Part shown: positions 14,243 to 29,552 of the stretch, one piece after another
Position numbering within the stretch: the stretch's first letter is position 1
How the letters are laid out: each line of letters starts with the position of its first letter
From: Bradyrhizobium murdochi
GTDB lineage: Bacteria; Pseudomonadota; Alphaproteobacteria; Rhizobiales; Xanthobacteraceae
Assembly (NCBI RefSeq): GCF_000472965.1
Contig: NZ_AXAU01000015.1
Coordinates: 62,001-126,000 of the forward strand
Direction: 5' to 3'
DNA length: 64,000 nucleotides
The notes under the pieces: generated by a model
Database searches by the model: none
Told to the model about the DNA's origin: nothing
What the model saw: the letters and a program-made list of their open reading frames with translations, nothing else
Program-made: the position numbers and the translations under genes

Positions 14243-15238
14243 TTACGCCGCGACGGGCTCCGCCGCGCGATCCTCGACCAGTGCGATCGCATCGCGCAGC
14301 ACGTCAACGCCGGCGCCCGGCCTAGTGCCCTTCTCCGCGAGATGGCGGCGAAAGGCGCGCGCGCCGGGCACGCCGTGAAACGCGCCGACGAAGTGCCGCG
14401 TCATCGCATGCAGCTTTGCGCCTTGCGCCAACTGGTCTTCAATATAAGGCAACATCGCTTCGAAGACGTCCTTCATCGTCGCGTGAGGTGCCACCTCGCC
14501 GAACAATTCCGGATCGACATCGAGTAGGCGCCATGGCTCCTGATAGGCCGCCCGCCCCAGCATCACGCCGTCGACATGGTCGAGGTGCCGCTTCGCCTCG
14601 GCAATACTGCCGACGCCGCCATTGATGATAATCGGCACACCCGGCAGCGCGGCCTTGAGCCGGTAAACCCTATCGTAATCGAGCGGCGGGACGTCGCGGT
14701 TTTCCTTCGGCGACAACCCGTTGAGCCAGGCCTTCCGGGCATGCACGATCAGCGCGTCGGCGCCGGCCGCGACCACGCCGCGCGCCAGCACGTCGAGCGC
14801 CACTTCCGGGTCCTGGTCGTCGATGCCGATCCGGCATTTGACTGTAACCGGAATCTTGACCGCACGCTTCATGGCAGCCACGCCCTCGGCGACCAGCGCC
14901 GGCTCCGCCATCAGGCAAGCGCCGAAGCGGCCATCCTTCACGCGGTCGGACGGACAGCCGACATTGAGATTAACTTCGTCGTAGCCAAAATCCTCGCCGA
15001 TCGTCGCGGCGGTCGCAAGATCATCCGGAACGGAACCACCGAGCTGCAGCGCCAGCGGATGCTCGCTTGGATCGAAGCCGAGCAGCCGCCTCCGGTCGCC
15101 ATGAATGATGGCGCCCGTCGTCAGCATCTCCGTATAAAGCCGCGCGCGCCGGCTCATCAGACGGTGGAACACGCGGCAGTGCCGGTCAGTCCAATCCATC
15201 ATCGGAGCCACAGAAAAGCGATAGTCTTGCGATTTCAA
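14243..15238 (-). CDS. dusA: tRNA-dihydrouridine(20/20a) synthase DusA, with 5' end at the island junction
   Basis: An FMN enzyme that reduces uridine 20/20a in the D-loop of tRNAs. The 331-residue reading has SVAPMMDWTDRHCR at the N-terminus, NLNVGCPSDRVKDGRFGACLM with the catalytic cysteine, VKCRIGIDD, IVHARKAWLNGLSPKENR and INGGVGS, all typical of DusA. The frame is open to 15367, but the TTG at 15238 is the likely start: AGGA lies 7 bases upstream and the length then matches the family. The sequence upstream of the start belongs to the inserted element, so the element has probably supplied a replacement start region and promoter for dusA. This fits known dusA-integrated islands. Confidence 0.88.
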   Translation of the reverse strand: MKSQDYRFSVAPMMDWTDRHCRVFHRLMSRRARLYTEMLTTGAIIHGDRRRLLGFDPSEHPLALQLGGSVPDDLATAATIGEDFGYDEVNLNVGCPSDRVKDGRFGACLMAEPALVAEGVAAMKRAVKIPVTVKCRIGIDDQDPEVALDVLARGVVAAGADALIVHARKAWLNGLSPKENRDVPPLDYDRVYRLKAALPGVPIIINGGVGSIAEAKRHLDHVDGVMLGRAAYQEPWRLLDVDPELFGEVAPHATMKDVFEAMLPYIEDQLAQGAKLHAMTRHFVGAFHGVPGARAFRRHLAEKGTRPGAGVDVLRDAIALVEDRAAEPVAA

Positions 15239-15275
15239 TGATTTATCCTGTACCCTCAATAGGATGAAAGAGGAA

Positions 15276-15370
15276 CGTGTGCACTTCAAACTAGCCGAAA
15301 TTGCACACGTTTGTACCCGTTTTGACCTCTCGGTGCACACGTAGCGCACACGAATTGGGGAGTGCACACG
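15276..15370. promoter_or_regulatory. Cluster of TGCACACG repeats between dusA and the integrase
   Basis: The octamer TGCACACG occurs on the plus strand at 15302, 15334 and 15363, with a one-mismatch copy CGCACACG at 15345 and an inverted copy CGTGTGCA at 15276-15283. Five copies in under 100 bp, right at the integration junction, suggest arm-type binding sites for the integrase or a directionality factor. They may also act as an operator for the integrase gene. The count and positions are read directly; the function is inferred. Confidence 0.6.
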
Positions 15371-15373
15371 GCT

Positions 15374-16498
15374 ATGGCCAGCTTCACTCAGTTGCCCTCC
15401 GGGAACTGGCGCGTCCAGGTCCGCCGCAAGAACCGCTATGTGTCAGAGACCTTTCGCCGTCGCAAGGACGGCGAAGACTGGGCGCTCGATATGGAGCGCA
15501 ATATCGACCGCAGTGGATCACCAAAGCCACGCGCTGCCGTACAGGCGCGTACATTCGGTGACATCATCGACCTTCATGTCGAGGATATGCATGAGGTAGG
15601 TCGCCCTCCCCGCCGTTCCAAGGCGGCCGTATTGGAAGCACTGAAGGAAGCCTTAGGCACAGTGAAGTTGGCCAAGCTCAATCGCGAGCGACTTATCGAA
15701 TTTGGTCGCAAGCGGGCGAAGGAAGGTGCGGGCCCAGCCACGCTGGCGATCGATTTCTCCTTTATCAGAACTGTCGCCACACACGCTGCAGCCGTTCATG
15801 GCATTGAAGTCTCGGCCGAAGAGGTTCGCTTAGCGCGCTTTGCGATGAAGCATTTGGGCCTTGTCGGGAAATCGGAGGAACGAGATCGACGTCCAACTGA
15901 AGACGAGCTTGGCGAACTCATTGAATATTTCGAGACCAATCCTCGACAAGTCATTCCAATGGGTCGGATCGTTCGGTACGCAGTCGCGACAACGATGCGA
16001 CAAGAGGAAATTTGCCGACCCGACTGGCCGGACGTGGACATGAAAACGCGGGTTCTGATCATCCGTGACCGCAAAGATCCCCGGGCGAAGGATGGCAACG
16101 ATCAGAAAGTCCCCCTTCTCAATCTGACCGGCTACGATGCGTGGGAAATCATGCTCCAGCAGCGGATCATCACGAGAGGTTGGGGTCGCGTGTTTCCGTA
16201 TAATCACCGCTCAGTAAGCGCTGCTTTCACGCGAGCCTGCGATGAGTTGAAGATCGAGGATTTGCATTTTCATGACCTGCGACACGAGGGGACTAGTCGT
16301 CTTTTTGAAGCAGGGCTCACGATCGAGAAGGTCGCGCTGGTAACCGGCCATAAGGATTGGCGGACGCTGCGGCGTTACACCAAGCTGAAGCCGGAAGAAC
16401 TCCACAAGCTACAAACGGCGCCGCAACCCTCTTTGGAGGAGTTCATCCAAACGCTCACGAGAAACGAGCTTGCAACGGGAGTGCGACAACAGGTGTAA
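15374..16498 (+). CDS. Tyrosine recombinase of the dusA-associated integrase family
   Basis: This 374-residue integrase would insert and excise the element at the 5' end of dusA. The N-terminus (MASFTQLPSGNWRVQVRRKN) and the catalytic set (Arg in TTMRQEEICR, Lys in the RDRKDP hairpin, HDLRHEG, TGHKDW and the nucleophile in RRYTKL) are all present, so it looks intact. ATG 15374 is used because family members start at MASF; the frame opens 4 codons earlier. It lies head-to-head with dusA, the usual layout for this family. Confidence 0.92.
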   Translation: MASFTQLPSGNWRVQVRRKNRYVSETFRRRKDGEDWALDMERNIDRSGSPKPRAAVQARTFGDIIDLHVEDMHEVGRPPRRSKAAVLEALKEALGTVKLAKLNRERLIEFGRKRAKEGAGPATLAIDFSFIRTVATHAAAVHGIEVSAEEVRLARFAMKHLGLVGKSEERDRRPTEDELGELIEYFETNPRQVIPMGRIVRYAVATTMRQEEICRPDWPDVDMKTRVLIIRDRKDPRAKDGNDQKVPLLNLTGYDAWEIMLQQRIITRGWGRVFPYNHRSVSAAFTRACDELKIEDLHFHDLRHEGTSRLFEAGLTIEKVALVTGHKDWRTLRRYTKLKPEELHKLQTAPQPSLEEFIQTLTRNELATGVRQQV

Positions 16499-16880: not shown

Positions 16881-17789
16881 TCAGACGTTTCGTCCGAGCC
16901 GCATGATGTGCTCGCGCAATTCGTTGCAGGCCGGCGCCATGCTGGGCGCCGGCTCCTTCGGATCGAAGCGATAGCTTATCGTCGTGACGCCGGCGAGGTC
17001 GCTCGGCAATTTCACGCGGGTCGCCCGAGGCTCCATAAGGATCGCGCGGCTTCGGCCTAGCCGTCCCATGAAGAACCCGAGCTCGAACACGACGTTGTCG
17101 CGCGGCGTCGGCCAGTCCTCGTCTCGCACTTCTGTCCGATCGTCGGGATGCGCGATGGCTACGGCGAAGTCGGAGCGGTCGAGTTCGTTCTCCAAGGATT
17201 CGAGGGTGTAGTTAGTGACCCGGAAGACGCCGTCAGCCCAGACGACGGTTGCGAACGGATCGTGGGCGAAAGCATTCTGGATGGTCCGGGCGACCGGCAG
17301 CGCCTCGGCTGAGGAGATGACGAAGACGCGGATCTTCTCGTTGGGCTCCCGAATGAACACGTTCCGTTGCTCCAGGCGCCTCGCGACTTCCTGAGCGACG
17401 CGACGCCAGATTTCCGGGAACTTGGTCGCGATCTCGGAGAATTTCGGCTCCTCGATCTTCAGGACCACGGCGTCCTCGTCGCAGATGACCGTTGCCGAGC
17501 GCTTCTGAATCGGCGACACCGTCGCCATCTCGCCGATCGAGTCCCCACTGAAGCGACGCGCGACTTGCTTACCGTTGACCAGGACGCGAAATGCGCCGGC
17601 GACGACGAGGAAGATGTCGTTGTCGGTGCCGTTCTGCTCGACAAGCGTATGGTCCTTGACCACGGCGTCGAGGACGCCGGTGTCGGCCAACGCCTCGGCG
17701 GCGCCGGCGATCCCGACCACAATCTTCTGCTTGCGGAGCTCCTCGATCAGGAGGGCGCGTCCCCGGTCGCCGTGAAACCTATTGATCAT
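16881..17789 (-). CDS. pycTIR: Pycsar effector PycTIR: cyclic-nucleotide-binding domain fused to CAP12/Pycsar-type TIR
   Basis: The 302-residue product is the killing arm of a Pycsar antiphage system. After a short helical start, residues ~45-135 form a cNMP-binding domain with the phosphate cassette FSGDSIGEMA...KRSATV. Residues ~150-290 form a TIR-like domain (IRVFVISSAEALPVARTIQ, then PRDNVVFELGFFMGRLGR, containing the likely catalytic Glu). In characterised Pycsar, cCMP or cUMP binding activates NAD+ destruction by this domain. ATG 17789 is chosen: its first base is shared with the TGA of the preceding gene (TGATG), and AAGGAG lies just upstream, showing translational coupling. It is the last gene of the operon. 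Confidence 0.9.
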   Translation of the reverse strand: MINRFHGDRGRALLIEELRKQKIVVGIAGAAEALADTGVLDAVVKDHTLVEQNGTDNDIFLVVAGAFRVLVNGKQVARRFSGDSIGEMATVSPIQKRSATVICDEDAVVLKIEEPKFSEIATKFPEIWRRVAQEVARRLEQRNVFIREPNEKIRVFVISSAEALPVARTIQNAFAHDPFATVVWADGVFRVTNYTLESLENELDRSDFAVAIAHPDDRTEVRDEDWPTPRDNVVFELGFFMGRLGRSRAILMEPRATRVKLPSDLAGVTTISYRFDPKEPAPSMAPACNELREHIMRLGRNV

Positions 17790-18580
17790 CACGCGGTCTC
17801 CTTCCGCAGCGGACAATAGTCCATGGTTCCGCAGCACTCGATACCCAGCGCGGTGTAGGCTGCATAGAATTCCTCCTCCGCCCGTTTCCAGCCATGTAAG
17901 GCGAGAGTGAGGTTGGTGAGCGCAGCTTGGTGATCGCCGCAGGCGCAGGCCGGAAGGCCGAGACGTGCTGCATCATCGCATTTGCAGCGCGCCCGTTTGG
18001 TCATCAGGCGGGAATCTCGTTCCGAAACCGTGACCAGACGTACGCCGTCGCGCAAAAGACGTATCCGCGGCTGGCCCGCGACCGACTTGCGCCGTGTGCT
18101 CAGACGCATCAGCTGCTTTCTGAATCGGGGTCCGAGCTCGGAGGCGGCGCGCTCTGCCACCACTTGGTGTCTGGCTGCACGCATGCCGTGAGCTCTGGCT
18201 TCGGCCTGGGCCGGCCACTGCCGACGCGCCGCGGCGACCCGCTGCCTGCGCAAGAACACGAGGAGCTTGCCGAACCAGAGCGAAGCGGATTTCGCATCCG
18301 TGACGGAAAGGGGTTCGGCTTCCTCCCAGTACAGGCAGAATGTGCCGTCGCAGTTGATGTGCCGTTCGGGGCAGCAAGCCGGCAACAGCGTCGGCTCGAC
18401 CTCGCGGACCACGGCGGCATCCCCGACTTCGTCGATGCGCAGCCTGTACGTCGGCCCAGGCGCCCCGGAGACGGCCGGCGGAGCCACATCGAGGATGGCG
18501 TGATCGCGCTCGAGTACAATCGGCTGCGCATGGTGCGCAGCCGATACGCCGCTGATGATTTCAAGTGGGCTCGGCGGCAT
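17789..18580 (-). CDS. E2-like (ubiquitin-conjugating fold) cysteine-rich accessory protein of the Pycsar operon
   Basis: A 263-residue protein between the cyclase and effector genes. Residues ~43-84 read as the core of an E2 enzyme: strand TYRLRIDEV, then PTLLPACCPERHINCDGTFCLYW, where H74, N76, G79 and C82 match the HPN...G.(I/F)CL pattern around an E2 catalytic cysteine. The C-terminal third is cysteine-rich (CKCDDAARLGLPACACGDH and CCGTMDYC), probably a metal-binding module. No E1 or JAB peptidase is adjacent. The start directly follows the cyclase stop (TGAATG), and the end overlaps the effector start. The E2 call is from the motif only; transfer activity and target are unknown. CBASS uses related E2 or E1-E2 proteins to prime cyclases, which suggests a similar role here. 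Confidence 0.6.
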   Translation of the reverse strand: MPPSPLEIISGVSAAHHAQPIVLERDHAILDVAPPAVSGAPGPTYRLRIDEVGDAAVVREVEPTLLPACCPERHINCDGTFCLYWEEAEPLSVTDAKSASLWFGKLLVFLRRQRVAAARRQWPAQAEARAHGMRAARHQVVAERAASELGPRFRKQLMRLSTRRKSVAGQPRIRLLRDGVRLVTVSERDSRLMTKRARCKCDDAARLGLPACACGDHQAALTNLTLALHGWKRAEEEFYAAYTALGIECCGTMDYCPLRKETA

Positions 18581-20113
18581 TCACGGCGTTTCGCTGAAGG
18601 GCCGGAACGGCTGTTCGACCGCCTTGGCCATTGCGGGAGCCGCCACCGCGTAGGCCGCGATCGCGGCGTCCTTCGCGACCTTGTCGCCCTCCGCTTCGAG
18701 CGAGTCCACGGCTGTGTCGTAGTCGAGGCCGGAGAGCTTGCGCGTCTTGCCGAACAGCTTCCTGACCGCATCGGTGCCGGCGTCATATGCGGCCTGTCCG
18801 ATCGCCGTCTCGACGCCGTTGCACCGGCACTGCTCGTCTTCCGAGGCAAGAACGCCGCGGCTGACCGAGCAACGCACGCGGTCGCCTTGCATGCCGAGAC
18901 GGGTCACGGTCATCGGGCCGAATTCGTAACCGATCGCCAGGCCCAGACCGGCGACGCCAACCTTGTTCGCCTTCAGCCGCTCGAGGGCGAGATCGAAGCT
19001 GCTCCTCAGAGCGCCGGCGCACAGCGTCGCCGTCGAGATGGTCTCCTGGTCGTAGGTCGTATGAGCCGTCCCCTCCATCAGAAGGGCGTGGATGCAATCG
19101 CCGACGAAGCGGATTCTGCGGCCGCCGAAGTCGGACGAGACGACCCGATCGAGCTCCGAGCGGATGACCTGGAAGCAGCGCACTACGTCGGCCGCCTTCT
19201 TGTCGATGTTGTCGGCGACGTACTTGGTGAACCCGTCGATATCGGCGTAGACCGACATTGCCTTCATCCGCTTGGAATTGCCAGGCGTGAGGACCGAGAT
19301 GTTCAAGCTGCGCAGCGGCGGAGTCGGACGCGAGAAGTCGAACGAGCCGATCGGGTTGTCCTTGTTGTCCTGACGCCATTCCTTGACTATCGTGTCCTTG
19401 CCGACCTCGAGCTTGGCAACATCCTGACAATAGGCGATCTGGTCCGCCGTGAGCGGCGTCGTTCCCTCCTTGCCTTCTTCGGTCTGTTCGATGCCCGCCG
19501 CCTTGCGGGCTCCGTTCGTGAGATAGATGCCCTCGGCGCGCCAGTTGGACGCCAGCTTGGCGGCGAGGTTGGCCGCCGACCCGAGGAACAGCGGCTCGCG
19601 GTTACCGTTGCGCCCGTTGTTGACGGCCAGCGTCAAACCGCTGTCGATGCCGATCCTGACCTTCGCGTTGGGGATGTCCTCATCGTCGTCTCCGGTATCT
19701 GCGAGCACGTCGATGATGAGCTTGCCGATCGCGACCGCCCGACAGACCCGCTTCTTCTCTTCTTCGGTCCCATAGGGCTTCGCGACCAGGGAATGAAGAC
19801 GCTGGTTGTGAAAGTCCACCCGGCGCGCGTCGCAGCGGGACAGGATCCTATGGACCGCGCGTTGATGGAGGTTGAGGAAGCGCAGCGTCCGCCTATGGCT
19901 GCGCTCGCCCTCCTTCTCGGTCGTGGCGAGGATGTCGGCCATGTTGAGGATATCGGCATACAGATGGGCGCCATCGACGCGATAGGCCTTGTTGGTCGGG
20001 ATCGACTCCAGCGACATATCTCGCTTGTAGTCGACGATCTCAACTGTCTTGACCTCCTCGAAGCGCTTGTCGATCGCTTCCTTCGCGCGGTCGTATTTCC
20101 AGGAATTGCCCAC
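18581..20113 (-). CDS. pycC: Pycsar pyrimidine nucleotidyl cyclase PycC (two cyclase domains)
   Basis: A class III nucleotidyl cyclase, by context a phage-responsive maker of cCMP or cUMP. The 510 residues hold two cyclase homology domains in tandem. The first (residues ~30-190) has LYADILNMADIL and GIDSGLTLAVNN...LGSAANLAAKLAS, but its second metal position reads DFHNQRLHSLV instead of GD. The second (~285-440) has both metal aspartates (VYADIDGFTKYV, RFVGDCIHALLMEG). It would thus fold as an intramolecular pseudodimer with one active site. GTG 20113 is preferred over 20173, with GGAG seven bases upstream and NSWKYDRAKEAI following. First gene of a three-gene operon, divergent from the XRE gene at 20309. 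Confidence 0.85.
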   Translation of the reverse strand: MGNSWKYDRAKEAIDKRFEEVKTVEIVDYKRDMSLESIPTNKAYRVDGAHLYADILNMADILATTEKEGERSHRRTLRFLNLHQRAVHRILSRCDARRVDFHNQRLHSLVAKPYGTEEEKKRVCRAVAIGKLIIDVLADTGDDDEDIPNAKVRIGIDSGLTLAVNNGRNGNREPLFLGSAANLAAKLASNWRAEGIYLTNGARKAAGIEQTEEGKEGTTPLTADQIAYCQDVAKLEVGKDTIVKEWRQDNKDNPIGSFDFSRPTPPLRSLNISVLTPGNSKRMKAMSVYADIDGFTKYVADNIDKKAADVVRCFQVIRSELDRVVSSDFGGRRIRFVGDCIHALLMEGTAHTTYDQETISTATLCAGALRSSFDLALERLKANKVGVAGLGLAIGYEFGPMTVTRLGMQGDRVRCSVSRGVLASEDEQCRCNGVETAIGQAAYDAGTDAVRKLFGKTRKLSGLDYDTAVDSLEAEGDKVAKDAAIAAYAVAAPAMAKAVEQPFRPFSETP

Positions 20114-20206
20114 GAGAAAACTCCAGCTTGTCGGCACTCGGTGCTGACCGCTATGCCGGGTTAGGCCAGCCAAAGAGCGGCCCTAGCCGACTCCGGCACG
20201 AAAACG

Positions 20207-20269
20207 TTCGGTATATCGAACACGATTGGTGTTCGCTTGTCAACTACGATCTCGTACGGTATATCGAAC
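20207..20269. promoter_or_regulatory. Paired operators between Pycsar operon and XRE repressor
   Basis: The 13-bp word CGGTATATCGAAC occurs twice in the same orientation, at 20209-20221 and 20257-20269. The first copy is part of the near-palindrome TTCGGTATATCGAA (20207-20220, 12 of 14 symmetric). Both lie in the 195-bp divergent promoter region, so one repressor could shut both the Pycsar operon and its own gene. Binding by the XRE protein is inferred from position. Confidence 0.65.
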
Positions 20270-20308
20270 TCGATCTAACTAATTGCCCTGGCTGGAGAAT
20301 TACTGGAC

Positions 20309-20629
20309 ATGCCCGTTTCGCTCCGCGACAAGCTGAAGGAATTGCGCAAAAAGAAGGGGTACTCGCTGGACGAACTCGCCCGGCTCAGCGGCGCCAGCAA
20401 AAGCTACCTGTGGGAGCTCGAGAACCGCAGCGAGCGCAAGCCATCCGCCGAGAAGCTCATCGATATTGCGAGGGTACTCGATACAACCACCGACTATCTC
20501 GTCGACGACAACGCGGGCTTCGACGACCAGCAGGTCAAGGAGGCATTCTTCCGCAAGTTCAACAATCTCGACGATGACACCAAGGGGCGGGTGATGGACA
20601 TGATCGAGACCTGGAGCCGGAAGAAATGA
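20309..20629 (+). CDS. XRE-family HTH repressor (CapH-like by context)
   Basis: A 106-residue protein with an N-terminal cI/XRE helix-turn-helix (LRDKLKELRKKKGYSLDELARLSGASKSYLWELENRSERKPSAEKLIDIARVL) and a short C-terminal helical tail probably for dimerisation. It overlaps the following protease gene by ATGA and diverges from the Pycsar operon across paired repeats. XRE/ImmA pairs are a common repressor plus antirepressor switch. In CBASS the same layout, CapH and CapP, keeps the defence off until DNA damage; this gene is probably the equivalent repressor for Pycsar. Confidence 0.88.
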   Translation: MPVSLRDKLKELRKKKGYSLDELARLSGASKSYLWELENRSERKPSAEKLIDIARVLDTTTDYLVDDNAGFDDQQVKEAFFRKFNNLDDDTKGRVMDMIETWSRKK

Positions 20630-21502
20630 AGATGCCGAAGACGTGGGAGGGTTGGGCCTCCCGGGTTTCGCTCTATGTCCGCGAAGGAAAGAAGCTGCTG
20701 GGCGAGCCTCGTTTTCCCATCAGGATCGCCGAGATCGCGCAGGACTATTCCCGGAACGTTTTTCCGGCGGATCCTATCGTGCACGTCGAAGGCAGAAACT
20801 TCGCGGGGAAGTTCGAGGGTGCCCTCGTCCCCAACGAAAGCAGGCAGTGGGCGATCTTCTACGACTCCGGTCATTCATCCAAAGGGCGCATCAACTTCAC
20901 GATGGCTCACGAGCTGGGTCATTATCTCGCGCATCGCCACCTCTCCGGCCAACCTTTCTACTGCTCTAGGCGCGACATGTGGACGTGGAATGGAGGCGGA
21001 GGCGAACAGCTTTGCCGCCTTCGTCCTCATGCCTCCCGACGACTTCCGCGAACAAACACGCGATTTCATCAAGCCGACATTGGCTCAATTCGAAGTGCTG
21101 CGGGACCGCTACGAGGTTTCGCTCACCGCAGTCGTTCTAAACTGGCTGAAAAGGACGAAGCGTCGGGCCATGCTGGTGGTCAGCAAAGAAGGCTTCATCG
21201 ACTGGTCTTGGGGGAGTGACCCGCTGTTCGCGTCGGGTGTGTTCTTCAAGGCCAAGCAGATAACGACGCCGGTGCCGGAGCGCTCTCTCGCGGCACTCGG
21301 TGTCGGCGCAGGCGTAGCAGAGATTCAGCATCCGCCAGGCGTATGGAATCCGCGCGAGTCTGTCCTCGAGTCTGTGGTTTTCTCCGAATACCACGACATG
21401 ACCTTGTCGCTGCTCATCTTCCCTCCCCACGGTCCTGCGATCGGGTTGTCAGGCTCGGAAGAAGACCAGCTCGTGGACACTTTCGACGCTTTCCGCGGGT
21501 GA
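20626..21502 (+). pseudogene. ImmA/IrrE-family metallopeptidase (CapP-like), interrupted by a frameshift
   Basis: The first frame (from 20626) runs through the zinc motif TMAHELGHYLAHRH to about 20988. The protein then continues in the +1 frame from about 20990 (MEAEANSFAAFVLMPPDDFREQTRDF...) to a stop at 21502. Removing a single A in GGAATGG would join the two halves into an intact ImmA/IrrE protease with a C-terminal sensor-like domain. Its ATG overlaps the XRE gene's stop. It may be a true mutation, a sequencing error, or less likely a programmed +1 shift. If truly broken, the XRE repressor may no longer be cleaved. Confidence 0.8.
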
Positions 21503-23199: not shown

Positions 23200-24108
23200 T
23201 TAGAATGGCCACCCCTGCCAAAGCCGTCGGACGCCTTCCAAGAAGTCGATATAGCCTTGTACGCTCCACGACGTGTGCGTGTTGTCGCGAACGAGCGGAT
23301 GAATGCCGTTGGCGCACGTCAAATCAGCATGACTATTACAGTTATTGATCCATCCCCAGCAGTTCTCGACGGTAGCTTGGCGGCTCCTGACAAATTGGTT
23401 TGCAGGAACGTTATACAGCATTCCCTCGATAAAATAGGACGGTGCGGAGCCGCTCTTCAACTTGCCGTCCCGGATTAGACGATTGCGCATGTTTTTGAAT
23501 ATGCGCACCGTCGGCTTTAGCCGCTCCTCGGTGTTTTGATGCTTCCACGTCATGTTTTCGGAATGCTGCTTCGGGTAATTGATGATGCTGGTTCCGTCGG
23601 TAGTGATGAACATAACCCCGTCAACGCATTGCTTGTCCTGCTCGCTGTAGTAGCGCGTATACTTCCTATGCGGCGCGACAAGCAGGATGTCGGAGCTGCG
23701 GCGGTTGTCGGTTGCCTTCAAACGCAGCGCCTTCTTTCCAGATGTGTCGAGGTCGGTCTTATACTGGTCGTACAGCCATTTGATCGCGTCATCCCGGAAG
23801 TTTGCCAACTGGTATTTAGAATCCGTCGGGTGCACGGTCCTGAACGCGGTCTTCTCCCCTTCGGACAGGGAATCGAGGTTGTAGTGGAAAAATGCCTTAG
23901 TCCGCAGAACAATATCGACGTCGCTATCGGCTCCGTACACGTTCGTGTCGTTTCCGTAAGATCCCTGCAGAAATGAGTCTATCCGCCGGGACGCGTAGGG
24001 AGCATTGCTGCTCTCTATCACGCCCTTGATGGACTGGTATGTGGCGGCGGATTGCGCCGCCGCCCCGATATGGGTCCAAGTTTCGAGCTGATTTTCGGGA
24101 ATCGCCAC
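23200..24108 (-). CDS. CBASS cyclic-oligonucleotide synthase (CD-NTase)
   Basis: A 302-residue cGAS/DncV-like nucleotidyltransferase that would make a cyclic nucleotide signal on phage infection. The helix-1 motif LQGSYGNDTNV is followed by the catalytic DSDVDIVLR, and a third acidic position sits in RRSSDILLV; the C-terminal half is the helical CD-NTase domain. The ATG is 10 bp after the phospholipase stop on the same strand. The order effector then cyclase, without Cap2/Cap3, is a type I CBASS. The clade and product cannot be told by eye. Confidence 0.9.
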   Translation of the reverse strand: MAIPENQLETWTHIGAAAQSAATYQSIKGVIESSNAPYASRRIDSFLQGSYGNDTNVYGADSDVDIVLRTKAFFHYNLDSLSEGEKTAFRTVHPTDSKYQLANFRDDAIKWLYDQYKTDLDTSGKKALRLKATDNRRSSDILLVAPHRKYTRYYSEQDKQCVDGVMFITTDGTSIINYPKQHSENMTWKHQNTEERLKPTVRIFKNMRNRLIRDGKLKSGSAPSYFIEGMLYNVPANQFVRSRQATVENCWGWINNCNSHADLTCANGIHPLVRDNTHTSWSVQGYIDFLEGVRRLWQGWPF

Positions 24109-24118
24109 GCCGCCCTCC

Positions 24119-25051
24119 TCAAAACAATTTCTTCAATGCGGGTTCGTACTCGCGGAAAGACTCGCGGCCCCGCTGGTAGAGCTGGTCCAGCTTGTCGAGG
24201 TCCGCTTCGAAAAGGTCGGCCGCCATTCTCGGCTCGGTGTACTTATTGCTGATGCGCACCGTCGCGATGTCCTTGAACAGGACGTGCAAAAGCTGGTCCA
24301 TCGACTTCGTGTTGATCTCGAGAACCCGCTGCAAGAGGCGGACTGTGAACAGGTAGCCGAACCAATGGGAAAGCGTCAGGTAGCGCTTCGGCGTTGGGTA
24401 TTCGCCCACTCCTACGCTCACGACACGGATGTGCTCGCGCGGCACCTTGAACGCCTCGGTAGCGTCAGCGATCGCATATAGGGTGGGGTTGTTCGCGCAG
24501 AAGCCGCCGTCGGCCGTCAGTATCTTCTGCTTGTCGCCGGTAACGATGAGCTTCCGGCGGAAGAACGGGTAGGCCGAGCATGAGGCTTGTACCGCGTCGC
24601 CTATAGTGCAGCCGAACCCGGGAACGAAGTTGCCGTGATCTCCGTGCGCCTGGGCAACCGAGGTCTTGAAGATAATCGGCGTCTCAAAATTCCACCGCGT
24701 CGCGACGATGCCAATATTCGTCTGAACGGCAGTGAAATCCCTGTTCCCGAAAACCTCAGCGGCAAGTTCGCGCAATGCTTGCGATTTGGTCCACGGAAAC
24801 CACTTTCCCATCACCTTCACGACATGGTCGCGGTAGAGCTGGTGGACTTCATCGATAGGGCAGCCCAAACAGACGAGCGCCGCGATTATCGACCCGGTGC
24901 TAGTGCCGAAGACGAGGTCGAAATGCCTATGCAGAGGGGCGCCAAGCAGGCCCTCAAGTCCTTTTAGCACACCGATGGTGTAGAAGCCTTTAGCGCCCCC
25001 GCCGTCTAGGCTAAGGATGCGACAAGGTCTGGCCGCAGAAAACTCGGCCAT
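24119..25051 (-). CDS. capV: CBASS effector patatin-like phospholipase (CapV)
   Basis: A 310-residue patatin-family lipase that destroys the cell membrane once activated by the CD-NTase product. The oxyanion motif LSLDGGGAKGFYT, nucleophile motif FGTSTGS and catalytic Asp in TADGGFCANNP are intact. The C-terminal ~120 residues are helical and probably bind the cyclic nucleotide. It is the first gene of the CBASS operon, 10 bp ahead of the cyclase. Confidence 0.9.
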   Translation of the reverse strand: MAEFSAARPCRILSLDGGGAKGFYTIGVLKGLEGLLGAPLHRHFDLVFGTSTGSIIAALVCLGCPIDEVHQLYRDHVVKVMGKWFPWTKSQALRELAAEVFGNRDFTAVQTNIGIVATRWNFETPIIFKTSVAQAHGDHGNFVPGFGCTIGDAVQASCSAYPFFRRKLIVTGDKQKILTADGGFCANNPTLYAIADATEAFKVPREHIRVVSVGVGEYPTPKRYLTLSHWFGYLFTVRLLQRVLEINTKSMDQLLHVLFKDIATVRISNKYTEPRMAADLFEADLDKLDQLYQRGRESFREYEPALKKLF

Positions 25052-25285: not shown

Positions 25286-25833
25286 GTGTGATTTACAAGG
25301 AAAATCAATAGCCATTCCGACAAATGGGACGATAGAACTGCATTGAGGCCGCAAGGGCGTTTCTCTTTGTCGGAATGATGGGTTTCGACTGGCGAGAACG
25401 ATGAGCCAGCTCCTGTTCGGGAAAAGAGGACTGCGAATTGTCGGGGCCTTTTTCTATCGGAAAAGACCCTAGCTCCCGAGCTGAAGTCTCGGAAGTCGGT
25501 CAAAAGCTCCAGCTCCTACGCACTCCATCGCCAACTCAGACCGGCTAGGTTCAAATCCCCGACCGGCAATCATCTTTACTTGCTCTTCAGCGCAGCGGCT
25601 TAACACCTCGAAAAATAGAACAAAGTCAAATACATCAGGGTCACCTCTTGATACAGGTTCCCGCGCACCCACGCTGAACTTGTTCGCGTGGTGCCTGTCC
25701 TCACGCGGCGGAGAACCGATTCATTCGTTCTCGGAATGTTCCGCCGTCGGTGCCAACGCACTTCCGACTTGGGGATTGGTTTACTCAGACGATAGGCAAA
25801 CCACTTCCACAACTGTATGTTTTGCATGTTTTA
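25286..25833. other. Spacer between CBASS and ABC-3C modules
   Basis: These 548 bp hold no convincing gene. Weak T-arm-like words occur at about 25545 (GGTTCAAATCC) and 25856 (GGATTCGAGCC) and may be further attachment-site debris, but their stems pair poorly. The promoter for the next operon must lie here; no clear box was identified. Confidence 0.4.
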
Positions 25834-27033
25834 ATGACCAATTGCGCCGGCCGGAAGGTCTTGGATTCGAGCCACGATAATACCGTCGCTGCACAGGCCG
25901 CAGGCTACATCCTGCAGCTCGATCGTGCATTACACCACTTGGCGCTCGCGGCGAGCAGCGATCTTGCTGTTGCAGTAGAACACGTCGACGACGTCGTCAC
26001 CATGCGCGACGGCAAGGTCGTCCTGGTCGAGCAGGACAAGAGCTCTTCTCAGCCGACCGCTCAGTTGTTAGCCAATCGAAGCCGAGCTTTTTGGCGTACA
26101 CTACAGATTTGGCTTCGCCATCGAGAAGGTCCAGACGGTCATTTTGTCAAGCGCCGGCTGTTCTTCGTCAATCAATGGGTGTCGTCTCCGATCGCGCTTC
26201 TGCTCAAGAAGCAAGCCAAGCGAGAGATCGAAGCCACCGAAGTCGTCAAAGTGATGCGGGATGTCGGAGCAAAACGCAGCAGGTCAAAAGCACAGGCTCT
26301 GATTGACGACGTGCTATCCAGGAGTGACGAAGACCTAGCCGCGCTTGTCGAAACGATTGAGATCGTCGAGGCTGAAGATCCCGCGAGCGAGAGAGCGAAT
26401 CTAGCAAACGGGCTCGGTCTGAATCCTCGAGCCGATGCAGATGACATCTTGAACGGACTTCTAGGATGGCTGACGACAAAGCTCCGGACCGAATGGTCTG
26501 AGGGGCGCCCGGGTGTGATTACACGCAAGGAGGTCCTTACTCAGAGCTACGCGCTACAGGAAAAGCAAGCCAAGAGACGATTCCTCCCTCGTCCATCCGC
26601 TGAGATCCTCATCAGCGAGGAGGACCGTGAGGGCGCACTCGCGCGAAATTTCGTCGAACATCTCGGACGGATCAGCGCTGAAAACGAAGACGTCGTTCAA
26701 GCCGTCGATCATTTCCTCAAGTTCAGCATCGAGAAGCACCGTCTTGTTCGTGCCGGAGACGTGCCCGTCGCCGAGTGGGGCAACCGCTCAAATCGGCTTA
26801 GGGAGCGTTGGGGTAACGTAATGCGCCGAAAAAGACGAGAGCTCGCAGGATCCGAAAACGCTACCATTGGCCAGGCAGTGCTCGCGGACACTACTTATGA
26901 GCACCGTGAAAGTCTCGATGGCCAAATGTGCGACGAGCTCTACATGACGTCCGGGCACTATCATCGTCTCGCGGAGGAAGATGAGGTTTGGTGGGATCCG
27001 AACTTTTCTAGGGAGGCACAGCATGAGAGATGA
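25834..27033 (+). CDS. ABC-three-component system effector-type protein (Cap4/DUF4297-like N-terminus)
   Basis: The first gene of an ABC-3C defence module, 399 aa from ATG 25834. The N-terminal region (AAGYILQLDRALHHLALA..., VAVEHVDDVVTMRDGKVVLVEQDKSS) matches the layout of restriction-like nuclease folds of the DUF4297/Cap4 kind: an invariant glycine helix, an acidic strand and Q-x-K-like VEQDK. The middle is charged and helical, and the C-terminus ([14 protein letters not shown]) overlaps the next gene by 11 bp. The start has no good ribosome site and could lie elsewhere. The nuclease role is inferred from position and fold resemblance. Confidence 0.65.
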   Translation: MTNCAGRKVLDSSHDNTVAAQAAGYILQLDRALHHLALAASSDLAVAVEHVDDVVTMRDGKVVLVEQDKSSSQPTAQLLANRSRAFWRTLQIWLRHREGPDGHFVKRRLFFVNQWVSSPIALLLKKQAKREIEATEVVKVMRDVGAKRSRSKAQALIDDVLSRSDEDLAALVETIEIVEAEDPASERANLANGLGLNPRADADDILNGLLGWLTTKLRTEWSEGRPGVITRKEVLTQSYALQEKQAKRRFLPRPSAEILISEEDREGALARNFVEHLGRISAENEDVVQAVDHFLKFSIEKHRLVRAGDVPVAEWGNRSNRLRERWGNVMRRKRRELAGSENATIGQAVLADTTYEHRESLDGQMCDELYMTSGHYHRLAEEDEVWWDPNFSREAQHER

Positions 27034-27514
27034 CCACGAGGAGCTTCTTGCACGCAATCCTGCTCTCCTCAGCCGATGTTTCTGGCATCTGGCCCGAAAG
27101 TACGGAGAAACGGCGGGAGGACAAGCTCCGAGTCTGCCAATATTTCTTGTAGGTGCGGGCCTTCTCTTTCACAGAGATACTCTCGACAAAGTACACCGCA
27201 TGAACTTTGATAGTCGGTTTCTCAAGGTAGTCGCCGAAAGGCCTGATTTGCTGGGTGGCCTGCAGTCAAGGGTAGAAGGGGCATTTGGCGCGTCACTCTT
27301 AGCGCTGCAGCTCGGTGTTGCGTCAGAGCTCCTCCAGCGCGACGGTGGAAGAGGCTTTCCCACGTTTCGAGCGTTGGGTGGGGCAGATTTGCCGGTCTCT
27401 CTGCGAGAGCCCTCCGGCTCAGGAGAAATGATCGCCGCAGCCAAAAGGCTCGGCGCATGGTTTGCGCTGGACCCCTTCGAGGTGATTCAACGTCAACTCG
27501 TTATAGAGTTTTAA
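27023..27514 (+). CDS. ABC-three-component system middle component
   Basis: A 163-residue helical protein with the ABC-3C middle-component pattern: [31 protein letters not shown], then a conserved [26 protein letters not shown] helix. It is thought to link the ATPase to the effector. ATG 27023 has GGGAGG six bases upstream and overlaps the stop of the previous gene; the longer frame from 26981 is rejected. It ends 4 bp before the ATPase gene. Confidence 0.8.
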
Positions 27515-27518
27515 GTCG

Positions 27519-29552
27519 ATGAAACTTTTCATTAAGGCGGTCGTCGTATGGCCGGAGGACCCAAACCACGATCCGCGAAGGGTACCCTTCGATATCGATA
27601 AAGTGTCCGTAGTGACCGGTTGGAGCAGTACGGGTAAGTCCTCGATCGTCGACATTATTAATTACGTTCTTGGGTCGGGAACCTGTTCGATACCGGTTGG
27701 CTACATCCGCGATCTTGCATCTTGGTACGGGCTGGAGATCGAGACTGACGTGGGTCCGATGCGGATCGCACGTCCTAAACCAGCCGCTCGTCAGATTTCG
27801 GACGACATCTGGCTACAGCAAGGTGGCGACACCGAGGGCCCACTCCCTAGGCGGCCAACGCCGACTATTAATGTTGCGCGTTTGAAAGCAATGTTCGATG
27901 CGATGTCAGGCCTGTCAAATCTAGGCATCGTCCCAGAAGGGGAGCAAAGCCGAGCAAGCTTTCGCGACATGGCATCCTTTAATCTGCTGCCACAGCATAT
28001 AGTCGCTAATCCCTACACGCTTCTCTTCAAAGCGGATTCGCAGTCTCACCGCACCAAGCTCCAGCAGGTGCTTCCTTTGGCCATGGGCATTGTGACTAAT
28101 GAAGATTTGGTTCGCGCCCATCGGCTAAGGCTTCTTCGCGACGAACTTCGTCAGATAGAAGCGGAGTTACGGACAAGACGCGATGCGATCGACAACTGGA
28201 AGGCGAATGCGCGGGGTGCTTTTTATCGCGCTCAAGAGCTTAGCTTGCTTCCGCCTGGCGAACCGCCCGAAAGCCTGCAGCTCTTGATCGGGCTCCTCCA
28301 GAAGGTCGTGAATGCCGGTGGCCATACGATCGCTACGGCAGGCAGAGTGACGGCTGCCGTCGAGCGGCTCGAAGACATTCGCCGGCGCGAGGAACATCTT
28401 GACGCCAAGATTAGCGCGGATCGACGACGGCTTCGCAAATTGAAGAGCTTAGCTCGCTCGGTGCTTGACTATGACGAAATCCTGCAAGAGCAACGGGCGA
28501 GCGTGGTTGGAGTTGGATGGTTCAAGGCTCAAACCCATGCAGAGACGTGCATTCTGTGTGGATCTGATACGGATACTGCCAAACAGGCACTCGCTAATTT
28601 GGAAGAGCCCATAGCCGAACTCTCTGCCCTCGCAGCTAGCGCCACTTCGACCAAGCCGATGGTCGATCGAGATATCATCGTAATCCAAGAGGAACTGTTG
28701 CGACACGAGCGGGATCTGTTGGCATTACGGCAGACGCGACAGGTCTTTGAAGCCGAAGTCGATATCGAGCAAGGCCGCAGTCAAAGCTTGGAGAACGTTT
28801 ATCGGTTTATTGGCTCAACTGAGCAGGCTCTCAACATGCTCGGCGAGGTCGAAGGCGAGAGTGGACTCGCGGAGCGCGCAGAGGCGCTTCGCAAGGAGAT
28901 CGCAGACCTCAACGCCCAAGCCAATGAGCTGGAGCGAAAAAGCCGGGCAGAACGGGCTCACAATCAGATATCAGGCTATATCCCCAGATTCATCGAGGCG
29001 ATGGGCGTCGCCGGTGCGGAAGGCAAACCAGTCCTCGACGAACGTGAGTTAAACATCAAGTTTGAACGAGAAGGAGCAAATCGCCCTGACTATCTGTGGG
29101 AGATCGGCAGCGGAGAGAATTGGATGGCGTACCATCTGGCCGCGCTTCTGGCACTTCACGGTGTGTTCCTAGCGCGTGGCACGACCAATCCAGTACCTTC
29201 CTTCCTCGTCATCGATCAGCCCAGCCAGGTCTATTTTCCGAGCGACACATTCGACGCATTCATCAAAGGCGAACAGCCCGCAGGTGGGCAGGATCAGCGG
29301 CCTAGACGCCGCAGGCATCTGACAGACATCGAGAGCACCGAGCGCATCTTCTCCAGCCTCGCGCGCGCCCATAAGAGCTTTGAGGCCCGCGTTCAGATTA
29401 TCGTTCTAGATCACGCAGACCGAAATGCTTGGGGTGACGTGGATGGGGTTGTTGGAGTTGCCAATTGGCGCGATGACGAGGACTTCCTTATCCCAGCCTC
29501 GTGGATCTCTCCACGATCTCAGGATACAGAAAAGACTGATGAGTACAACTGA
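27519..29552 (+). CDS. ABC-three-component system ATPase, DUF3732 (SMC/Rad50-like)
   Basis: A 677-residue ABC ATPase split by a long coiled coil. Residues ~25-50 hold Walker A ([21 protein letters not shown]). Two coiled-coil stretches flank a hinge containing CILCG (a zinc-hook-like half, at about residue 345). The C-terminal lobe has the signature-like [20 protein letters not shown], Walker [14 protein letters not shown] and the D/H-loop IIVLDHAD. This is the DUF3732 type of the ABC-3C systems, which sense invading DNA or RNA and trigger the effector. It follows the middle component by 4 bp. Confidence 0.88.

What the first reader, a model, noticed from the sequence alone, without database searches (positions are those of the whole stretch)
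20207..21502. CapH/CapP-like switch attached to Pycsar instead of CBASS
An XRE repressor gene overlaps an ImmA/IrrE metalloprotease gene and diverges from the Pycsar operon across two CGGTATATCGAAC repeats. This copies the CapH-CapP control known for CBASS. I infer DNA-damage or single-stranded-DNA control of Pycsar.
Basis: partly seen in the sequence, partly recalled or inferred. Interest (0 to 1): 0.7.

Follow-up and report, generated by a model that had tools for sequence, protein, structure and literature searches.

The report
CBASS-type CapH switch borrowed by Pycsar
A bacterial anti-phage suicide system (Pycsar) here sits under a repressor switch of the kind that normally guards another defence system (CBASS), but the protease that should release the repressor is broken in this sequence, so the defence may be stuck off.

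Summary
An XRE gene (20309-20629, CapH) overlaps an ImmA/IrrE gene (from 20626, CapP) and diverges from pycC-E2-pycTIR across two 16-bp near-palindromes (20206-20221, 20254-20269). But capP is broken: against three intact relatives it lacks 17 nt between the HExxH region and the next conserved Glu, so the frame shifts and ends at 21219.

The repeats are very likely CapH operators. The same pair lies upstream of CapH in 11 of 11 loci of the window's CapH clade, 0 of 21 others and 0 of 6400 shuffles. The first repeat differs by one base from the site upstream of an E. coli CapH whose domains are in the PDB.

The nearest relatives (70-72% DNA identity) sit at type III CBASS in Rhizobium and Agrobacterium. 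CapHP plus operators therefore looks like a CBASS cassette joined to Pycsar. CapH trees reject one clade for Pycsar-linked CapH.

CapHP-Pycsar association is already in print, so the headline is not new. Damage-inducible control is plausible for the family but, as sequenced, not for this locus: the best guess is a switch locked off, unless the deletion is an assembly error.

The parts
20309..20629 (+). capH: XRE/HTH_3 repressor, 106 aa
   Evidence: PADLOC capH 1.9e-27, Pfam HTH_3 1.7e-13; PDB 7t5u E 6.5e-16; 81-87% identical to CapH of three CBASS-linked Rhizobium/Agrobacterium loci
20626..21219 (+). capP, 5' part: native N-terminal part with HELGH, then about 74 out-of-frame codons to a stop
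   Evidence: PADLOC capP positions 16-96, E 4.4e-22; Pfam Peptidase_M78 positions 18-61
20990..21502 (+). capP, 3' part in the other frame (MEAEANSF... to the C-terminus); ATG at 20990; no stop for 170 codons
   Evidence: PADLOC capP positions 97-241, E 1.2e-30; 73% identical to L067 CapP over 20963-21433; ATG and reading checked
20206..20221 (.). operator 1, GTTCGGTATATCGAAC, just downstream of a TTGACA -35 of the pyc operon
   Evidence: function inferred by comparison
20254..20269 (.). operator 2, GTACGGTATATCGAAC, covers the proposed -10 (TATATC 20260-20265) of the capH promoter
   Evidence: function inferred by comparison
20237..20243 (.). proposed shared -35 element: TTGTCA for capH (+), TTGACA for pyc (-); conserved in three CBASS-linked relatives
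   Evidence: inferred from consensus; the generic promoter scan found none
18581..20113 (-). pycC, Pycsar cyclase (GTG start with GGAG Shine-Dalgarno)
   Evidence: PADLOC PycC 2.5e-225; PDB 6yii E 4.5e-196; start checked
17789..18580 (-). E2 (E2-ntca) plus E2-Crich accessory protein of the Pycsar operon
   Evidence: Pfam PF20298 5e-27, PF20272 1.1e-23
16881..17789 (-). PycTIR effector (cNMP-binding plus TIR)
   Evidence: Pfam CAP12-PCTIR_TIR 3.6e-33; PDB 8jsj PycTIR 1.2e-52; ATG at 17789

Best explanation
This is a CapH/CapP control cassette of the type found at type III CBASS in Rhizobium/Agrobacterium, complete with its paired operators and divergent promoters, joined to a Pycsar operon (pycC, E2, pycTIR). 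CapH most likely binds both palindromes and shuts both its own promoter and the pyc promoter. In intact relatives an ssDNA-activated CapP would cleave CapH and switch the operon on during DNA damage or phage attack. Here capP has lost 17 nt inside the protease domain, so the protease should be dead and the Pycsar operon held off or at a basal level. Shown: gene identities, operator conservation, nearest kin at CBASS, the frameshift in this assembly. Inferred: direction of transfer, CapH binding, repression, the locked-off state.
For: capH and capP profile hits; PDB 7t5u and 7t5t are the best solved relatives of CapH and of the intact L067 CapP. The operator pair is in 11 of 11 upstreams of the window's CapH clade, 0 of 21 other CapH upstreams and 0 of 6400 shuffles, and occurs once per locus in the 10 relatives' 163 kb, always upstream of CapH. 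Operator 1 is 1 mismatch from the site upstream of an E. coli CapH whose N- and C-terminal parts match PDB 7t5u and 7t5v/7t5w, and 2 from that of Thauera K11, whose CapP is PDB 7t5t. CapH tree: the window sits with 3 CBASS-linked CapH at 100/100 (30 rows) or 95/100 (32 rows); all 9 Pycsar-linked CapH as one clade is rejected (p-AU 2e-52), as is window plus the 7 Bradyrhizobium-type ones (p-AU 9e-6). 17-nt gap against 3 intact relatives. In the genome search for capP (E<=1e-10, 6 of 7 candidates scored) the only other match is a C-terminal piece with a stop on contig C67 (E 3.5e-21), not found there by tblastn with intact CapP.
Against: No binding or expression data. The deletion could be an assembly error; no second assembly or reads were available. 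The 3' half of capP stays open and conserved for 170 codons, which fits a recent break, a sequence error, or continued use. The pyc-side -10 is not a clear consensus and the generic promoter scan found nothing. The E. coli and Thauera loci have only one full palindrome; their second site is degenerate and, in E. coli, 60 bp away, so they do not meet the pair definition. The pair definition and the clade list were fixed after I had seen the sites; the protein-only tree then returned the same 11 rows. Basal leakiness or another inducer could still let Pycsar work.
Confidence: 0.68

Rival explanations
1. The capP deletion is an assembly or sequencing error; the locus is an ordinary, working, ssDNA-inducible CapH/CapP switch on Pycsar.
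For: The rest of capP is conserved and open in both frames; capH, pycC, E2 and pycTIR match their families along their length; 29 of the other 31 CapP loci compared give one uninterrupted frame over their matched stretch (the exceptions are L097, one stop, and L074, split).
Against: A 17-nt gap away from homopolymers is not a typical base-calling error; the assembly is rated 100% complete.
Confidence: 0.22
2. CapP works as a split protein: the 5' piece supplies HExxH and the 3' piece, restarted at ATG 20990, supplies the glutamate and sensor domain, giving an unusual two-part protease.
For: An in-frame ATG lies right at MEAEAN and the ORF is open to 21502.
Against: The junction splits the conserved protease domain (M78 profile positions 61/64) and the 5' piece carries a 74-residue foreign tail; of 31 other loci only L074 shows a split capP.
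Confidence: 0.04
3. CapH/CapP serves the CBASS genes (23200-25051) or is an island-wide regulator rather than a Pycsar switch.
For: CBASS is the partner of 6 of the 11 loci of this CapH class, and a CBASS lies 1.7 kb downstream here.
Against: The CBASS operon is convergent with capP, and no operator-like 16-mer with 3 or fewer mismatches occurs near it.
Confidence: 0.05

Closest known systems
CapH+CapP of CBASS (Thauera sp. K11 and E. coli plasmid loci L129, L130; PDB 7t5t CapP, 7t5u/7t5v/7t5w HTH protein)
   Same: HTH repressor plus ImmA/IrrE protease in overlapping or adjacent genes, divergent from the operon, first operator within 1-2 bases
   Different: controlled operon is Pycsar, not CBASS; capP is frameshifted; second operator is near-perfect and 48 bp from the first here, degenerate and 60 bp away in the E. 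coli locus
CapH+CapP next to type III CBASS in R. leguminosarum 248, R. leguminosarum BT01 and A. tumefaciens 1D1108 (L067-L069)
   Same: 70-72% DNA identity over window 20308-21426, same paired operators and central TTGTCAA
   Different: they face DUF2188-AAA-HORMA-CD-NTase-DUF6602; the window has pycC directly, no DUF2188 and a broken capP
CapH+CapP next to Pycsar in Bradyrhizobium-family genomes (L059-L062, L064, L065, L111/L112) and Sphingobium (L110)
   Same: CapHP placed divergently next to PycC-E2 operons
   Different: other CapH clades and a different repeated upstream element (CTABTYYGAAC); in the two Bradyrhizobium-family loci checked (L059, L061) the operon also holds a cNMP-binding/cyclase fusion
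CapW/BrxR (WYL) next to Pycsar
   Same: defence-linked regulator near pycC, e.g. a WYL protein in Sulfitobacter indolifex; BrxR homologues co-localize with Pycsar (PMC9122601, passages)
   Different: unrelated single-protein regulator
ImmR/ImmA of ICEBs1, DdrO/PprI of Deinococcus
   Same: repressor plus metallopeptidase logic (PMC10904395, passages; the ICEBs1 comparison is recalled)
   Different: control mobile element excision (recalled) or a DNA-damage regulon, not an abortive defence operon

Membership tests
CapH (HTH repressor of CapH+CapP) | sequence match to the CapH family | tested here: met
   PADLOC capH 1.9e-27 over 4-105; PDB 7t5u 6.5e-16
CapH (HTH repressor of CapH+CapP) | operator sites in the divergent promoter | tested here: met
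   conserved pair, (comparative, not biochemical)
CapH (HTH repressor of CapH+CapP) | binds DNA and represses the adjacent operon | not testable with these tools
   needs EMSA or reporter
CapP (ImmA/IrrE-type metallopeptidase) | intact reading frame through the HExxH region, the next conserved Glu and the C-terminal half | tested here: not met
   two frames, 17-nt gap against relatives
CapP (ImmA/IrrE-type metallopeptidase) | ssDNA-activated cleavage of CapH | not testable with these tools
   reported for the family in PMC13373217 and PMC10904395 (passages)
Pycsar | PycC-type cyclase (by sequence; its product was not tested) | tested here: met
   PADLOC PycC 2.5e-225; PDB 6yii 4.5e-196
Pycsar | cyclic-nucleotide-binding effector (PycTIR or PycTM) | tested here: met
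   cNMP_binding plus TIR, PycTIR 9.9e-121
Pycsar | phage protection | not testable with these tools
   needs plaque assays

The most novel reading that the evidence does not exclude
Defence operons exchange whole control cassettes: the CapH/CapP genes together with both operators and the back-to-back promoters moved from a type III CBASS to a Pycsar operon, one of at least three separate CapHP-Pycsar pairings, and here the newly installed switch then lost its protease, freezing a suicide system in the off state.
Probability: 0.45. Interest if true: 0.55.

Novelty: new member of a known kind. Interest (0 to 1): 0.36.

Why it matters
It suggests, from sequence, that CapH/CapP can be carried between unrelated abortive defence systems with its DNA sites, which would explain how such systems gain damage-responsive control quickly. 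It also gives a natural case where the release protease appears lost while the suicide genes stay intact, a testable example of silencing. The operator consensus (GTTCG-N6..8-CGAAC pairs around TTGTCAA) could let other CapH-controlled operons be found from DNA alone.

Tried and rejected
Rejected: that CapH/CapP serves the nearby CBASS (no operator there at 3 or fewer mismatches, convergent genes). Rejected: one clade for all Pycsar-linked CapH (AU tests). Rejected: an alphaproteobacterial SOS box (GTTC-N7-GTTC, recalled consensus, exact match only) in the intergenic region: none in 20114-20309. Rejected as a spare protease: the C67 piece (a C-terminal stretch with a stop); around it I found no CapP by tblastn at 1e-4 and ORFs I read as transposase debris (no family search was run on them).

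Led nowhere: the genome-contig scan with PycC gave a single relative, matched over residues 124-437 only; the leader between pycC and operator 1 matched none of 11 relatives' upstreams convincingly, the L053 match starting 4 nt before the start codon; the generic promoter scan found nothing; four CapHP loci of the window's CapH class (L089, L090, L092, L103) have divergent operons I could not name: eight of their proteins gave no PADLOC family (two of L090 and two of L089; four of L103), and none of L092's was searched. The tRNA search of the window found none. The right end of the Dus-gene island was not found: the 151-nt probe matched contig C6 only at itself.

Rows dropped before counts: the 32 CapH upstreams leave out L104 (same locus as L062), L105 (weak CapP, no CapH match), L109 (CapH 30%, CapP 28% identical; no site found), L075, L119, the small loci, and L129/L130, which were fetched later. 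CapH trees used 30 of 32 rows (L074 and L097 left out as long branches; one search has all 32). 'System' labels in the trees were set by me from annotation or tblastn; L091 was labelled 'other' there and identified as CBASS later. The second AU group (window plus 7) was named after the tree had been seen. L119 has an ImmA-like piece (28.7%, E 1.7e-11) upstream of pycC without a CapH match and was not counted as CapHP; L116 has an annotated HTH/ImmA pair 3 kb beyond the Pycsar genes that faces another operon and was not counted either.

Full report
What is there. The XRE gene (20309-20629, 106 aa) matches PADLOC capH at 1.9e-27 and PDB 7t5u at 6.5e-16. Its stop overlaps the ATG of the ImmA/IrrE gene at 20626. 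On the other strand, pycC (GTG 20113 to 18581), an E2/E2-Crich gene and pycTIR form the operon; each has strong family hits. Between them, 195 bp hold two 16-bp near-palindromes: GTTCGGTATATCGAAC at 20206 and GTACGGTATATCGAAC at 20254.

The correction. The ImmA/IrrE gene is not one reading frame. Frame 20626-21219 matches capP profile positions 16-96, frame 20675-21502 matches 97-241, and Pfam M78 is split in the same way. Aligned with the intact capP of R. leguminosarum 248, R. leguminosarum BT01 and A. tumefaciens 1D1108, the window lacks 17 nt at the junction, between the HExxH stretch and the conserved MEAEAN. The protein would lose the conserved Glu of that stretch (the third zinc ligand, by recall of this protease family) and the whole C-terminal half. 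Of the other 31 CapP loci compared, 29 show one uninterrupted frame over their matched stretch (which for several starts only near residue 29); L097 has a stop and L074 is split. Whether the gap is biological or an assembly fault cannot be settled here.

The repeats as operators. I extracted 260 bp upstream of CapH from 32 CapH loci. A pair of GTTCG-N6..8-CGAAC sites (at most 1 mismatch each, centres 40-54 bp apart) is present in all 11 loci of the window's CapH clade, in 0 of the 21 others and in 0 of 6400 dinucleotide shuffles. In 163 kb around the 10 relatives the pair occurs exactly once per locus, upstream of CapH. The definition of the pair and the list of 11 were drawn after I had seen the sites; the tree of CapH proteins alone then returned the same 11 rows at 100/100. 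Part of the 11 were found by searching with an L069 protein, so the sample leans to this class. The 21 others often carry a different element, CTABTYYGAAC: 12 have two copies and 4 one, against 0 of 4200 shuffles with any (pattern also set after viewing). The E. coli CapH locus L130 and Thauera K11 (L129) carry GTTCGGTATAGCGAAC and GTTCGGAATAGCGAAC, 1 and 2 mismatches from operator 1. The CapP of L129 is PDB 7t5t by full-length identity, and L130 CapH is identical to chain 7t5u over the 66 residues shown, with 7t5v and 7t5w matching its C-terminus. Against a full parallel, these two loci have a single full palindrome; the second site is degenerate, 60 bp away in E. coli. Operator 2 covers the -10 of a capH promoter (TTGTCA, 17 bp, TATATC), and operator 1 follows a TTGACA -35 facing pycC. 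These promoter assignments are inference; the generic scan found none.

Where the cassette came from. The best plasmid DNA match of capH-capP (70-72%, starting at capH) is to Rhizobium and Agrobacterium, where the pair diverges from DUF2188-AAA-HORMA-CD-NTase-DUF6602, which I class as type III CBASS from those genes. Aligned further upstream, both operators and the TTGTCAA between them are shared, and visible similarity ends at operator 1. On the Pycsar side, the closest syntenic relative (L053: the same Dus-gene/integrase stretch, 83% DNA, and pycC-E2-pycTIR, 72% DNA) has no CapHP in its 20 kb; its pycC matches the window only from about the start codon inward. In the CapH tree the window joins the three CBASS-linked sequences at 100/100 (30 rows) or 95/100 (all 32 rows). 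One clade for all 9 Pycsar-linked CapH is rejected (p-AU 2e-52), as is window plus the 7 Bradyrhizobium-type ones (p-AU 9e-6; this group was named after a first tree); the Pycsar label needs at least 3 changes, and the count does not give their direction. Of the 11 loci of the window's class, 6 have CBASS (L067-L069, L091, L093, L100), 1 Pycsar (window) and 4 are unidentified.

How common. PycC (PDLC00762, E<=1e-40) was found in 16 of 391 family genomes, 18 matches. A divergent CapH-CapP pair lies next to 7 of the 18: window, L059, L060, L061, L062, L064, L065. Four further PycC genomes from class and phylum samples (2 of 385 and 4 of 398 genomes with a match, the window's counted in both) have none in the stretches fetched; L072 and L073 hold only about 3 and 2 kb upstream of pycC. 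On plasmids, 28 records have PycC and 37 have CapP at the cut-offs used; 2 records are in both lists, and in both the pair faces pycC (L110; L111/L112 across the record start). I looked at 9 of the 28 PycC records, these 2 chosen because of the overlap; the other 7 have no CapHP at pycC. Over all 31 PycC places seen, the pair stands at 1 of 15 that are at least 53% identical to the window's PycC (the window itself) and at 8 of 16 more distant ones, with that bias.

Mechanism. By the published model (passages in PMC13373217 and PMC10904395), CapH represses until ssDNA-activated CapP cuts it. With capP broken and no intact CapP found elsewhere in this assembly, CapH should hold both promoters down. 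I rate repression through the two sites about 0.85 and the locked-off state as sequenced about 0.65.

Known or new. [quoted passage not shown] The primary paper on CapH/CapP (Lau et al. 2022) is recalled only; the two DOIs I tried for it were not held. Full-text searches for Pycsar with ImmA, CapH, ubiquitin, WYL or E2 domain, and for CapH with CapP, gave no title or abstract start that describes a cassette swap or a broken capP at Pycsar; apart from the passages named I did not read the listed papers. So this is a new member of a known kind, with an instructive exchange and a probable loss.

Noticed in passing
window 14243-16498: A dihydrouridine synthase gene (Pfam Dus 4e-84; dusA by my reading) with a tyrosine integrase at its start; Pycsar, CapHP, CBASS and Lamassu genes follow. 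G331 (L053) has the same Dus/integrase stretch at 83% with Pycsar inverted. A 31-bp piece of the Dus start recurs at 87-90% on contigs C5 and C20.
   Followed up: partly
window 23200-25051: Two-gene CBASS: CD-NTase (PADLOC Cyclase 4e-114) and a patatin phospholipase effector (CapV-like), convergent with capP.
   Followed up: partly
window 25750-29552: Lamassu-like LmuA (PADLOC 1.8e-39) and LmuB (6.6e-107) pair.
   Followed up: no
L067:7635-7871, L110:5253-5486, L068, L069, L090, L092, L095, L097-L099, L103, L106: A small DUF2188 protein is encoded right beside CapH, divergently, in 12 of 32 CapHP loci, before CBASS, Pycsar and unnamed operons; none was found in the window.
   Followed up: partly
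L059:7637-8749, L061:8291-9427: In these two Bradyrhizobium-family Pycsar operons next to CapHP, the gene nearest CapH is a fusion of a cyclic-nucleotide-binding domain and a second cyclase (PADLOC PDLC00734), then PycC and E2-Crich; in L061 a DUF1488 protein follows.
   Followed up: partly
window 17789-18580 and many pycC loci: An E2/E2-Crich gene follows pycC in 23 of the 31 pycC places seen, in alpha- and gammaproteobacteria (L118 by annotation); its role in Pycsar is unclear and a paper search for Pycsar with 'E2 domain' listed only a CBASS review.
   Followed up: no
L090:6174-8283, L103:5866-7978: CapHP of the window's class next to DUF2188 plus two proteins (about 390 and 316 aa) with no PADLOC or Pfam family; possibly an undescribed or Bub-type operon.
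   Followed up: no
L117:4925-5800: A WYL protein diverges from pycC in Sulfitobacter indolifex, so Pycsar may also take the CapW/BrxR type of control.
   Followed up: no
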